Positions 7,554 through 24,885 of a stretch of DNA of 64,000 bases are shown in pieces. The translations under genes were made by a program, and so were the position numbers. The notes beneath the pieces were generated by a model. That model saw only the letters and a list, made by a program, of their open reading frames with translations, had not been told where the DNA came from and did no database searches. Source of the stretch: Burkholderiales bacterium (lineage in GTDB: Bacteria > Pseudomonadota > Gammaproteobacteria > Burkholderiales > UBA6910); NCBI GenBank assembly GCA_026005015.1, contig BPKG01000004.1, forward strand, positions 248,001-312,000. Direction: 5' to 3'. Within the stretch, counting starts at the first letter, position 1, and the number at the start of each line of letters is the position of its first letter.

Positions 7554-8537
7554 TCAGCGCTTGCCGAGCGCGATGGCGCGGTCGATCATCTCCTTGGCGC
7601 CCTGCACCTCCTTGCCGAACTCCTCGTAGACGGACTTGCTGGCGGCGATGAAGGCGTCCTTGTCAGGGGTGTTCACCTGCATGCCGGCGGCTTTGAGCTT
7701 CTCCAGCAGCTCGGTGTCGAAGCGCTCGGCGGTCTGGTAGACGAAGGACTGGGTCTCCCTGGCCGTCTCCTCCAGCACCTTGCGCACGTCTTCGGGCAAC
7801 TGGTTCCATTTCTTGAACCCCACAGTCACGTAGGCCGGGGTGTACACGTGACCGGTGAGGGAGAGGTATTTCTGCACCTCCTGGAACTTGGCGCTGTAAA
7901 TCTGAGCAAAGGGGTTTTCCTGGCCGTCCATGACCCCGGTCTGCAAGGCCGTGAACACCTCGGAGAACTTCATCGGGCTAGGATTCGCCCCGTAGGCCTG
8001 GAACATCTTCACCCGCCATTTGCCCTCCGGCACCCGCAGCTTAATGCCCTGCAGGTCTTCGGGCTTCTGGATAGGCCGCTTGTTGTTGGTGATGTGGCGG
8101 TAGCCGTTCTCCCACACGGCGATGATCTTGAGCCCCTTCTTCTCCGCCAGGGGCGCGAGCAAGGGCCAGAATACCTCCTTCTCGATGCGCTTCATGTGCT
8201 CCCGGTCCTTCACCAGGTAGGGCATCTCGAAGACGCCGAAGGCGTCCACCTCCGAGGACATCACGGTGGAGGGAAGGGCGAAATCCACCGTCCCCAGCTT
8301 GAGCTTCTGCAGCAGCTCCTTGTCGCCACCGAGCTGGCTGGAGCCGTACACCACCACCTTGTACTTGCCGCCCAGCCGGGCGTTGGCGCGCTGGGCGAAC
8401 TCCTCGGCGGAAAGGGCGAAAAGGGAGCCCGGCTCGCCCACGTGGCCGAACTTGAGCTCCACCGGCTCCGCCCGCACCGGCGCGGGGGCCAGGGCGGCGA
8501 AGGCGAACAAAACGATCAGCAGCCGTAAGTACTTCAT
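7554..8537 (-). CDS. dctP: TRAP transporter substrate-binding protein (DctP family)
   Basis: 327 residues with a clear signal peptide (MKYLRLLIVLFAFAALAPAPVRA). The mature protein begins EPVELKFGHVGEPGS. Family features include GGDKELLQKLKLGTVDFAL, the conserved arginine-bearing segment LQGIKLRVPEG that binds the substrate carboxylate, and TGVMDGQENPFAQIYS. It captures an organic acid in the periplasm for DctQM. First TRAP gene, 77 bp after the aminotransferase gene. The ligand cannot be assigned. Confidence 0.94.
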   Translation of the reverse strand: MKYLRLLIVLFAFAALAPAPVRAEPVELKFGHVGEPGSLFALSAEEFAQRANARLGGKYKVVVYGSSQLGGDKELLQKLKLGTVDFALPSTVMSSEVDAFGVFEMPYLVKDREHMKRIEKEVFWPLLAPLAEKKGLKIIAVWENGYRHITNNKRPIQKPEDLQGIKLRVPEGKWRVKMFQAYGANPSPMKFSEVFTALQTGVMDGQENPFAQIYSAKFQEVQKYLSLTGHVYTPAYVTVGFKKWNQLPEDVRKVLEETARETQSFVYQTAERFDTELLEKLKAAGMQVNTPDKDAFIAASKSVYEEFGKEVQGAKEMIDRAIALGKR

Positions 8538-22657: not shown

Positions 22658-23836
22658 TCAAGGCTCCAGCTCGAAGTCGATGGTGAGCCGATCGGCGGCG
22701 TGGGGCCGGAAACGCCGGTCGGCGTAGGCCACGTGCTCCGGATGCCGGGCGTAAGTGTCGACCACCGCGCGCGAGGCAAACCGCACCAGCCAGACCCGTT
22801 GGTAGCGGGCGTGCGGGGTGAGCGCCTGGCCCGCGTCCACGCGCCGCACGCCCGGCACCCGCGCGAGCCGTTCCCGACCCTCGGCGATCCAACCCTCCAT
22901 TTCCTCGGGCGACAGGTCGTTCGGATTGAATACGACCACGTGCGCCACCTCCCGCCAGGGGCGGCAGGCGGCGAGCGCCGCTTCAGCGCGCCCGGCACTG
23001 CCGAACACGGTGTTCACCCGTGCCACCTCTGCCTGGACGGCCCGGCGCACGCCGGCGATGAGCCGGGTATAACCCGCCTTGGGGTCCTGCGCTGCCGCTT
23101 CCCGGACCGCCGCCGCGGCGGCGTCCGAAAGAGCCGTGTAGTAATTGATCTTGGCCACGCCGTTTTCGATGAGCCGTCGGAACTCGCCGTCTTCCAGGCC
23201 GGTCCCGCCATGGATGACCAGCGGAATCCCCAGGGCCGAGTTGATGCGGGCCAGGCGCTCGAAATCGAGCCGGGGCCGACCCCGCAGACGGCCGTGGACG
23301 GTGCCGACCGAAACCGCGAGGCAATCCACACCGGTCTGTTCGACGAACAGGCGCGCTTCTTCCGGGGAAGTGTAGATCGCTTCGCCCGGGTGTTTTTCCG
23401 CGTCTTCGCCTTCGACGCCGGCCACGTAGCCGAGCTCCCCCTCCACCGGCACGCCGCAAGCGTGGGCAAATTCCACGACTTCGCGAGTGCGGGCCACGTT
23501 GTCGGCGAACGGCAAGTGTGAGGCGTCCACCATCACCGCATTGGCCCCCAGCCGGATCGCCCGCTCGACCGATTCCAGGCCCGAGCCGTGGTCCAGGTGG
23601 ATCGCCACCGGCACCGCGGCCCGGCGGGCCACCGCCACTACCGCCGGCATCAAGGTATCGAAGTCATAGTGCTCGAAGTGGGATTCGGCCAGGGACAGGA
23701 TCACCGGGGCACGGGTGGCCTCGGCCCCCGAGAGCGCCGCTTCCAGGAACTCGAGACCCACCAGATCGAAGGCGCCCACCGCGTAGCGGTGGCGATAGGC
23801 GTGGGCAAGCAGGTCTGAGAAGTGGACGAGGGGCAT
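22658..23836 (-). CDS. Class II fructose-bisphosphate aldolase-family protein fused to a C-terminal Dabb (stress-responsive A/B barrel) domain
   Basis: 392 residues from the ATG at 23836. Residues ~1-285 are a class II ketose-bisphosphate aldolase (KbaY/FbaA family): metal ligands in IHLDHGSG, VEGELGYVAG, VGTVHGRLRG and VIHGGTGLED are all present. Residues ~295-392 are an extra ferredoxin-like Dabb domain (WREVAHVVVFN, LSPEEMEGWIAEG and YARHPEHVAYADRRF) not part of ordinary aldolases. It sits between cbbY and fbp, so it may act in the Calvin cycle on FBP or SBP. A second, conventional Calvin-type aldolase is encoded at 29573. The role of the Dabb domain is unknown; it could be regulatory, oligomerising or catalytic on a side product. 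Confidence 0.88.
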   Translation of the reverse strand: MPLVHFSDLLAHAYRHRYAVGAFDLVGLEFLEAALSGAEATRAPVILSLAESHFEHYDFDTLMPAVVAVARRAAVPVAIHLDHGSGLESVERAIRLGANAVMVDASHLPFADNVARTREVVEFAHACGVPVEGELGYVAGVEGEDAEKHPGEAIYTSPEEARLFVEQTGVDCLAVSVGTVHGRLRGRPRLDFERLARINSALGIPLVIHGGTGLEDGEFRRLIENGVAKINYYTALSDAAAAAVREAAAQDPKAGYTRLIAGVRRAVQAEVARVNTVFGSAGRAEAALAACRPWREVAHVVVFNPNDLSPEEMEGWIAEGRERLARVPGVRRVDAGQALTPHARYQRVWLVRFASRAVVDTYARHPEHVAYADRRFRPHAADRLTIDFELEP

Positions 23837-23840
23837 GGAC

Positions 23841-24110
23841 TCAACTCTTCGCAGAAAAGGCAGCCGGCGCCTTTCCACCCGTCCGTACCGTGGATCGCCC
23901 AAAAGAAAAGACCCTTCCGCGGAAGCGGTAAGGGTCTAAGTCCAACGGACGTGCGCAGTGGTACAACGAACCGTCAGAGTGGAGGAAAGCCGTTCCCCGC
24001 GCCCAGAGACCTGGCTTCATCTCCAGGAGCGCGTAGGCAAGCCAGTTACCACTATAGGGGCGCCAGCGCCTCGCCGACAAATCGATCTTCTTATCGTTAC
24101 GATAAGACAT
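23841..24110 (-). CDS. Possible small protein between cbbY and aldolase (doubtful)
   Basis: An 89-codon frame starts with an ATG overlapping the last 14 bases of cbbY and stops four bases before the aldolase ATG, which is operon-like spacing. The product is rich in aromatic residues (SARRWRPYSGNWLAYALLEM, DPYRFRGRVFSFG) and has no domain, signal or membrane segment that I recognise. Against it: no good Shine-Dalgarno sequence, third-position GC below that of its neighbours, and the frame runs straight through a strong terminator hairpin. More likely a by-product of a structured RNA, but it should be tested. Confidence 0.25.
   Translation of the reverse strand: MSYRNDKKIDLSARRWRPYSGNWLAYALLEMKPGLWARGTAFLHSDGSLYHCARPLDLDPYRFRGRVFSFGRSTVRTGGKAPAAFSAKS
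23898..23937 (-). terminator. Intrinsic terminator in the 5' leader of the aldolase-Dabb gene
   Basis: On the minus strand AGACCCTT-a-CCGC-ttcc-GCGG-AAGGGTCT forms a 12-bp stem with one bulged base, followed by TTTTCTTTT. It ends about 62 bases before the aldolase ATG, so it either ends the cbbL-cbbY transcript, ends a small RNA, or acts as a conditional attenuator for aldolase-fbp. Confidence 0.7.
23898..24056 (-). ncRNA. Candidate structured leader or small RNA upstream of aldolase-Dabb, family not recognised
   Basis: The minus-strand transcript of the 260-bp gap between cbbY and the aldolase gene folds readily. GTGGTA pairs with TACCAC to enclose three hairpins: GGC-tt-GCC; CGCGC/GCGCG with an inner CCTGG/CCAGG; and GGAA/TTCC. 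A small GTCC-gtt-GGAC hairpin and then the terminator at 23898-23937 follow. A promoter-like pair lies just upstream. Third-position GC of the overlapping reading frame is lower than in neighbouring genes, favouring RNA over protein. I could not match it to a known riboswitch; at roughly 150 bases it could also be an independent small RNA such as a 6S-like RNA. Confidence 0.4.
24051..24080 (-). promoter_or_regulatory. Candidate promoter for the aldolase-Dabb/fbp leader
   Basis: Minus strand TTGTCG, 18 bases, TATAGT, reading toward the structured leader; the start would be near 24044. It follows the palindrome at 24089-24107, whose centre would be near -54, a position suited to a LysR-type activator. 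Confidence 0.4.
24089..24107. promoter_or_regulatory. Palindrome TCTTATCGT-T-ACGATAAGA, CbbR-like box (TTAT-N7-ATAA)
   Basis: A perfect 9+1+9 inverted repeat that overlaps the end of cbbY. It contains TTAT-N7-ATAA, which fits the CbbR consensus TNA-N7-TNA and the LysR T-N11-A rule. The same TTAT-N7-ATAA form recurs at 37176-37190 upstream of tkt. Confidence 0.45.
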
Positions 24111-24885
24111 CTTTACCGCCCTTCAGCGCCTCGGCGTGCCAGGCCCGCAGCAAGCCGGGATCCGCCCAGCGTTTGCCATGGGCGCTGCCGCGCAGCACCC
24201 GGAAGGGCCGTTCCGGCTCGCCGAAGCCGCTGACGACCGCCACCGCGCCAACGAAGTCCTGGCCCTGCGTGTAGTCGTTGACCACGATCAGGGTCGCGAG
24301 CCCCGCCTGCAGGCTCGAGCGCAGCCCGTTCTCGGAATCTTCCACCGCCAGGCACGCCTGGGGGCTCAGCCCGAGCCGGTCCAGCACCCAGGCATAGATG
24401 TCCGGCGCTGGCTTCTTGGCCCCCACCACGTCCCCGGCGCCGATCACCTCGAACCAGGCCGGGCCCGCCGGCCCCAGGTTCGCTTCCAGGAGGGCCTGGA
24501 CGTTGTCCGGCGTCGTGGTGGTGGCGATGGCGAGGCGCAGTCCCTCGGCCCGCAACGCTTCCAGCAGCGGTCTCACGCCAGGGCGGAAGGCAATGCGCCC
24601 TTGCGCCACCAGATCCGTATAGATGCGGGTCTTGCGCCGGTGCAGCGCTTGCACCAGCTCCGCGAAGTCGGCACGCCGGGCCGTCCCGGGATCGAAGCGC
24701 TCGGCGTAATGGCGTATGCGCTCCTTGCCGCCGGTGACCGACAGCAGCCGGCCGTAGAGCACCGCGTCCCAGTGCCAGGCGAGCCCCGCCTCGGCGAAAG
24801 CGGCGTTGAACGCCACCCGGTGCCCGTCCCGCTCGGTGTCGGCCAGGGTGCCGTCCACGTCGAAGATGACCGCCTCTAGTGCCAT
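24097..24885 (-). CDS. cbbY: CbbY-type HAD phosphatase (xylulose-1,5-bisphosphate phosphatase)
   Basis: 262 residues. HAD motif I is AVIFDVDGTLADTE, motif II ATTTTP, motif III lysine in GAKKPAPDIY, and motif IV VEDSENGL. The cap (AFNAAFAEAGL, WHWD, RLLSVTGGKERI) matches CbbY rather than phosphoglycolate phosphatase CbbZ. CbbY removes xylulose-1,5-bisphosphate, a misfire inhibitor of RuBisCO. It lies 37 bp downstream of cbbX, the activase gene, so the two RuBisCO-maintenance functions are side by side. The 3' end overlaps a palindrome that may regulate the next unit. Confidence 0.92.
   Translation of the reverse strand: MALEAVIFDVDGTLADTERDGHRVAFNAAFAEAGLAWHWDAVLYGRLLSVTGGKERIRHYAERFDPGTARRADFAELVQALHRRKTRIYTDLVAQGRIAFRPGVRPLLEALRAEGLRLAIATTTTPDNVQALLEANLGPAGPAWFEVIGAGDVVGAKKPAPDIYAWVLDRLGLSPQACLAVEDSENGLRSSLQAGLATLIVVNDYTQGQDFVGAVAVVSGFGEPERPFRVLRGSAHGKRWADPGLLRAWHAEALKGGKDVLS

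What the first reader, a model, noticed from the sequence alone, without database searches (positions are those of the whole stretch)
23836..24110. Promoter, structured RNA and terminator ahead of the aldolase-Dabb/fbp unit: possible attenuator, riboswitch or small RNA in a Calvin operon
Within 275 bp there is a CbbR-like palindrome, a TTGTCG-N18-TATAGT promoter, about 100 bases that fold into a closed multi-hairpin element, an intrinsic terminator with U-run, and then the aldolase ATG about 62 bases later. This order (promoter, folded domain, terminator, gene) is that of a transcription-attenuating leader. GGTCT in the second hairpin could pair with AGACC of the terminator stem, which would give a switch. 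I know of no characterised riboswitch for Calvin-cycle sugar-phosphate genes, and the element does not match the families I know. A stand-alone 6S-like small RNA, or an 89-codon protein, remain alternatives.
Basis: partly seen in the sequence, partly recalled or inferred. Interest (0 to 1): 0.75.

Follow-up and report, generated by a model that had tools for sequence, protein, structure and literature searches.

The report
Candidate small RNA inside Calvin-cycle operon
Between two genes of a bacterial carbon-fixation operon lies what looks like a short regulatory RNA gene with its own start and stop signals, found so far only in one genus; it looks like an ordinary kind of small RNA rather than a metabolite-sensing switch.

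Summary
The gap between cbbY and the aldolase-Dabb gene (minus strand) does hold a promoter-like site and a strong intrinsic terminator. Only one other genome with the element was found (G001, same genus, syntenic). Shared: (i) 23 identical bases from the cbbY stop into the -35; (ii) 57 nt, 53 identical (shuffle maximum 34), with UUCCUCC and a hairpin; (iii) the terminator stem, kept by two two-sided and two one-sided changes, with a U-rich tail. The 99-nt domain folds no better than shuffles; breaking the terminator costs 10-13 kcal/mol. No reading frame is conserved, Rfam gives no match above cut-off, 6S lies elsewhere, Hfq is encoded. A terminator of like strength was not found upstream of 43 related aldolase genes. 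Best reading: an Hfq-type small RNA gene of about 145 nt, inferred to act in trans through UUCCUCC, whose terminator would also end the upstream cbb transcript. A dual attenuator/sRNA stays possible: no promoter was found between terminator and aldolase. Limits: two genomes, no expression data, and hairpin 1 by itself is no more stable than shuffles.

The parts
24097..24885 (-). cbbY (HAD-like phosphatase), gene upstream of the element; its stop codon is the start of the conserved promoter block
24077..24099 (-). Block TAACGATAAGAAGATCGATTTGT, identical in G001: cbbY stop codon, the region upstream of the -35, and the first four bases (TTGT) of the -35; perhaps a regulator or UP-type site (inferred)
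   Evidence: without its first base it is unique in the own genome at up to 3 mismatches
24091..24105 (-).
24051..24080 (-). Promoter-like site TTGTCG-N18-TATAGT (9 of 12); G001 has TTGTTC-N18-TATCAT at the same place (8 of 12 by eye, below the scan's threshold)
23988..24044 (-). Variable 5' part of the inferred RNA (start near 24044 inferred from the -10); similarity to G001 near chance
23981..23987 (-). UUCCUCC, identical in G001, complementary to Shine-Dalgarno sequences; inferred seed
   Evidence: unpaired probabilities 0.45-0.94 here and 0.15-0.96 in G001; but in some single best folds part of it pairs with a GGGAA or GGAAGG just upstream
23941..23978 (-). Hairpin 1 (15 predicted pairs), same predicted fold in both genomes
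23909..23937 (-). Intrinsic terminator hairpin, 12 pairs shared with G001: two changed on both sides, two on one side, eight unchanged
23901..23908 (-). U-rich tail UUUCUUUU (preceded by the U of the closing pair)
23837..23900 (-). Leader between terminator and aldolase ATG; similarity to G001 near chance, no promoter found
22658..23836 (-). Class II fructose-bisphosphate aldolase fused to a Dabb domain, gene downstream

Best explanation
The gap carries a small non-coding RNA gene. It is probably transcribed from its own promoter at the end of cbbY (start near 24044, inferred) and ends at the terminator at about 23901, giving an RNA of about 145 nt (about 175 nt in G001). The 3' 87 nt are the likely functional core: a Shine-Dalgarno-complementary UUCCUCC, a conserved hairpin, and a terminator hairpin with U-rich tail, a layout like that of Hfq-binding trans-acting small RNAs. 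The inferred action is base-pairing with ribosome-binding sites of target mRNAs to lower their translation, from a gene placed inside the cbb operon; targets are unknown. The same terminator would also end, fully or partly, transcripts arriving from cbbLS-cbbX-cbbY. Shown by computation: the conservation pattern, pair-keeping changes in the terminator, lack of a conserved frame, presence of an hfq gene. Inferred: transcription, start site, Hfq binding, trans action.
For: 57 nt with 53 identical in G001, while 500 shuffles reach at most 34 and the rest of the gap is near chance (best 30-mer 20 identities, shuffle mean 18.5); flanking cbbY is 80% identical. Terminator stem: 12 shared pairs, 2 changed on both sides, 2 on one side, none broken. 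23 identical bases and promoter-like hexamers at the same place and spacing in both genomes. Same fold of the 3' part in both genomes, z -3.40 and -3.04. UUCCUCC largely unpaired in both full-length ensembles. No reading frame with shared start and stop. Hfq in 4 of 4 family genomes held. No Rfam family above cut-off.
Against: Only two genomes, of one genus, are known to have it. No RNA data. The G001 promoter is below the scan's threshold. Hairpin 1 without the terminator is no more stable than shuffles (z -0.30 and -1.19), and in some single best folds part of UUCCUCC is paired. The U tail is interrupted by a C in both genomes, whereas the abstract of PMC5558911 describes seven or more T for Hfq sRNAs. 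Target search in the window gave nothing usable. No promoter was found between terminator and aldolase, so the aldolase may depend on read-through, which would make the terminator an attenuator in effect.
Confidence: 0.6

Rival explanations
1. Transcription attenuator or riboswitch for the aldolase-fbp unit: the conserved 57 nt sense a ligand or protein and decide whether the terminator forms. A mixed form, in which the terminated leader is also a trans-acting sRNA, is included.
For: Order promoter, conserved RNA, variable terminator, gene; no promoter found after the terminator in either genome; UUCCUCC could in both genomes pair with the terminator 3' arm, GGAAGG or GGAGGG (read from the sequences; the G001 fold with an unpaired 5' arm uses this pairing). 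Precedent for a leader that is also an sRNA: UpsM (PMC5089854, abstract).
Against: Keeping the terminator 5' arm from its partner costs 12.8 kcal/mol here and 10.4 in G001. 43 loci with related aldolases gave one R1 match, at E 5.2, and two weak terminator candidates (-9.3 and -8.8 kcal/mol). The leader after the terminator is not conserved. Taxon-restricted switches exist, so absence elsewhere is not decisive.
Confidence: 0.17
2. Plain end of the cbbLS-cbbX-cbbY transcript, with the conserved RNA as a processed 3' UTR product and no promoter of its own.
For: Position just behind cbbY on the same strand; strong terminator kept in both genomes; the G001 promoter is weak.
Against: The promoter region, not only the 3' part, is conserved: 20 identical bases beyond the cbbY stop, with promoter-like hexamers at the same spacing.
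Confidence: 0.15
3. A small protein-coding gene (the 89-codon frame or another frame on either strand).
For: The 89-codon frame is open in the window.
Against: Upstream of the block that frame has in G001 no ATG or GTG, only a TTG at another place, and it ends 66 instead of 144 nt after the start of the block; 2 synonymous and 2 non-synonymous changes; no frame on either strand that opens at or before the block keeps both start and stop (frames opening inside the block were not listed). Pfam gives nothing above cut-off for this frame.
Confidence: 0.03
4. A 6S-like RNA that binds RNA polymerase.
For: Length in the range of 6S RNAs (recalled).
Against: The genome's 6S gene is elsewhere (C4:238534-238715, 67.6 bits); no 6S match here or in G001 even at E 10; the 3' part folds as two hairpins, not a rod with a central bubble (the 6S shape is recalled).
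Confidence: 0.02

Closest known systems
Hfq-dependent trans-acting sRNAs (general class; e.g. SgrS and RyhB, named in the abstract of PMC5558911)
   Same: Candidate seed, hairpin, intrinsic terminator with U-rich tail, promoter-like site; Hfq encoded in the genome
   Different: No Rfam family matched above cut-off; tail interrupted by C; targets and Hfq binding untested; found in one genus only
UpsM of Rhodobacter sphaeroides (PMC5089854, abstract read)
   Same: sRNA released by an intrinsic terminator ahead of a gene cluster, restricted to one taxon
   Different: UpsM is the 5' leader of the dcw cluster in Rhodobacteraceae; no sequence relation tested or claimed; here read-through is not shown
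RblR, antisense RNA regulating RuBisCO in Synechocystis (PMC5306279, search listing only)
   Same: Small RNA tied to carbon-fixation genes
   Different: RblR is an antisense RNA in a cyanobacterium; this one lies on the sense strand between genes, in another lineage
Rfam RF02278 Betaproteobacteria toxic small RNA
   Same: UCCUCCA ahead of a terminator hairpin (weak alignment)
   Different: 13.7 bits against a gathering score of 50, E 3.4; not a member

Membership tests
Hfq-type trans-acting sRNA | Discrete gene with own promoter and intrinsic terminator | tested here: inconclusive
   Terminator kept with pair-keeping changes; promoter-like site at the same place in both genomes, but below threshold in G001; transcription not testable
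Hfq-type trans-acting sRNA | Seven or more consecutive T at the terminator (abstract of PMC5558911) | tested here: not met
   UUUUCUUUU and UUUCUUUUUU: 8 of 9 and 9 of 10 U, interrupted; longest runs 4 and 6. So it is not filed as a strict member
Hfq-type trans-acting sRNA | Conserved unpaired seed | tested here: inconclusive
   UUCCUCC identical in two genomes; unpaired probabilities 0.45-0.94 and 0.15-0.96, but partly paired in some single best folds
Hfq-type trans-acting sRNA | Hfq present, and binds the RNA | tested here: inconclusive
   Presence met, 4 of 4 family genomes held; binding not testable
Riboswitch / transcription attenuator | Conserved sensor with mutually exclusive terminator and antiterminator | tested here: not met
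Ligand-bound and co-transcriptional states cannot be computed here
Riboswitch / transcription attenuator | Travels with the regulated gene | tested here: not met
   One chance-level R1 match (E 5.2) in 43 loci; two weak terminator candidates and no comparable one upstream of 43 related aldolase genes; but the sister genome with the gene has it
6S RNA | Covariance model RF00013 | tested here: not met
   No match here; 6S found elsewhere in the genome
Small protein-coding gene | Conserved start, stop and codon-wise substitution | tested here: not met
   two genomes only

The most novel reading that the evidence does not exclude
A dual-function intercistronic RNA in a Calvin-cycle operon: terminated, it is a trans-acting anti-Shine-Dalgarno sRNA; read through, it lets the aldolase-fbp unit be made, so that carbon-fixation output and a distant regulon are set by one termination decision.
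Probability: 0.1. Interest if true: 0.6.

Novelty: new member of a known kind. Interest (0 to 1): 0.3.

Why it matters
The rows listed by my literature searches (most lists were cut, and many subscription papers are not held) showed no small RNA or riboswitch in a proteobacterial cbb operon. If real, this would place a post-transcriptional regulator at the RuBisCO locus and give a simple, testable case. It is a genus-level candidate, not a new class.

Tried and rejected
Closed 99-nt domain: rejected, z +0.50. Matches to the 5' part in G002 (44 nt, E 3.9e-5) and G040 (24 nt, E 0.0089): both cover the part that is not conserved in G001. The G002 one lies in overlapping open frames; with 60 genomes searched about 0.002 such matches are expected, so chance is not a full account and it stays unexplained. 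R1 match in G031, 23.3 bits, E 0.0076: about 3 such are expected over 399 genomes, and the place reads by eye as part of a reverse-strand open frame (the ORF list, which leaves out frames running off the locus, showed none); taken as chance. Target prediction for 43 crudely called genes of the window: strong GC-rich duplexes throughout (mean best -27.5 kcal/mol), no usable ranking. GGAGGAA shortly before a possible start: 6 places in the window and 3 in 40 kb of G001, among them a transporter-like gene here and cbbL in G001, not alike in both; no target claimed. UUCCUCC pairing with the terminator 3' arm was kept only under the attenuator rival. Plasmids: no match; viral contigs: no exact match to one 26-base pattern. 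L018, the only one of 47 loci with a cbbY match upstream of the aldolase, has a 295-nt gap with no promoter-like or terminator-like site.

Full report
WHAT IS THERE. The gap holds TTGTCG-N18-TATAGT (24080..24051), the only promoter-like site of the kilobase scanned, and a 12-pair hairpin with U-rich tail (23937..23901; -19.8 kcal/mol, z -5.79). The simple terminator scan did not list it; a scan that folds each candidate did.

COMPARISON. Of 60 genomes (own included) and 399 genomes of the order (own included), only G001, the same genus, has a convincing match besides the own genome. The 40 kb fetched from its contig align with the window over 38.5 kb, with breaks. cbbY is 80% and the aldolase 95% identical in DNA, the gap 62% on a global alignment. 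Inside the gap, identity is concentrated in two blocks: TAACGATAAGAAGATCGATTTGT, 23 bases whose first three are the cbbY stop, and 57 nt with 4 differences. The best 57-base ungapped identity is 53; 500 shuffles that keep dinucleotides reach at most 34. With both blocks masked the best 30-mer has 20 identities against a shuffle mean of 18.5, so the rest of the gap is near chance. The promoter hexamers sit at the same place and spacing in G001 (TTGTTC-N18-TATCAT, read) but fall below the scan's threshold.

STRUCTURE. Both genomes fold the 3' part alike: hairpin 1 with the same bracket pattern and the terminator (z -3.40 and -3.04). The terminator carries this signal: the stretch with hairpin 1 but without the terminator gives z -0.30 (73 of 200 shuffles as good) and -1.19 (21 of 200). 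UUCCUCC has unpaired probabilities of 0.45-0.94 here and 0.15-0.96 in G001 in the full-length ensembles, yet part of it is paired in the best folds. Of the 4 substitutions in the 57 nt, one changes a U-G pair to C-G, one lies in the loop, one in the single strand, and one in the outermost terminator pair (A-U to G-U). The terminator has 12 shared pairs: 2 changed on both sides, 2 on one side, 8 unchanged, none broken; G001 adds one pair. With two sequences this covariation is suggestive, not statistical.

ATTENUATOR TEST. If the terminator 5' arm may pair only upstream or not at all, the best fold loses 12.8 kcal/mol in the window and 10.4 in G001. The 5-bp GGTCT/AGACC pairing is not preserved: G001's 5' domain has no GGTCT (it has GGGGGTC, which could in principle pair but sits in a strong local hairpin in the predicted fold). 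Related aldolase genes elsewhere do not carry the element: model R1 on 43 loci gave one match, at E 5.2, and a terminator scan of the 420 bases upstream (less in two loci) in the same 43 loci gave two weak candidates (-9.3 and -8.8 kcal/mol, against -19 here). Four of the 47 loci were left out of both: L043 and L047 lack the gene start, L048 has almost no upstream sequence, L046 is a distant homologue (39% identity). The Dabb domain was tested only in the window's protein. On the other side, neither genome shows a promoter between terminator and aldolase, so read-through may matter; the attenuator is lowered, not excluded.

CODING AND KNOWN RNA TESTS. No frame on either strand that opens at or before the 57-nt block keeps both start and stop; in the 89-codon frame there are 2 synonymous and 2 non-synonymous changes. 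Rfam: nothing at gathering score in the window; at E up to 10 the six matches here and the one in G001 are far below cut-off. The 6S gene is at C4:238534-238715. Hfq is encoded in 4 of 4 genomes of the family that are held.

DISTRIBUTION. R1 against 399 genomes of the order: own, G001 and a chance-level match in G031; against 369 of the class at E 0.001: own only. The other two family genomes held, G002 (85% complete) and G003, show neither a convincing match to the element nor an aldolase-Dabb relative at E 1e-80, so their lack of the element does not separate the readings. The order and class sets are draws from larger groups, and stricter Infernal filters were used, which lose weak matches.

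UPSTREAM SITE. The conserved block next to the -35 is unique in the genome at up to 3 mismatches, and the palindrome has no second match in the window at up to 2 mismatches, the region between cbbL and the LysR-type gene beside it included. Calling it a CbbR site is therefore not supported; it may bind another regulator.

CONCLUSION. The best-supported reading is an intercistronic small RNA gene of Hfq type, with trans action inferred from UUCCUCC. The seven-T feature given in the abstract of PMC5558911 is not met (runs of 4 and 6), so I say it works like such an sRNA and do not file it as a strict member. Precedent for terminated leaders acting as sRNAs: UpsM (PMC5089854, abstract) and Rli51 (PMC11394854, title and start of abstract in the search listing). 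Literature searches for small RNAs or riboswitches with cbb genes listed cyanobacterial cases such as RblR (PMC5306279, listing) and none in a proteobacterial cbb operon among the rows shown; four of the five lists were cut at 12-15 rows, and the library lacks most subscription papers.

Noticed in passing
window 27706 (minus strand, cbbL): One extra base relative to the intact 483-aa cbbL of G001 shifts the frame of the RuBisCO large-subunit gene; real mutation or assembly error.
   Followed up: partly
window 22658-23836: Class II aldolase fused to a Dabb domain. In 43 named loci, 40 relatives are 56-75% identical, mostly in gamma- and alphaproteobacterial MAGs, and three are 39-50% (near records may be left out); a relative at E 1e-80 is in 2 of the 4 family genomes: possible horizontal gain.
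   Followed up: no
window 24077-24099: Promoter-proximal block of 23 bases identical between two species whose cbbY genes are 80% identical; unique in the genome, regulator unknown.
   Followed up: partly
window 7554-8537 (minus): Gene that looks by eye like a TRAP-type solute-binding protein, with a ribosome site GAGAGGAGGAAGACC-ATG complementary to UUCCUCC; G001 has GGAGGAT there. Not claimed as a target.
   Followed up: partly
L003 1501-1544 (G002) against window 23989-24032: 44 bases, 84% identical to the variable 5' part, E 3.9e-5, inside open frames of a family member; unexplained.
   Followed up: partly
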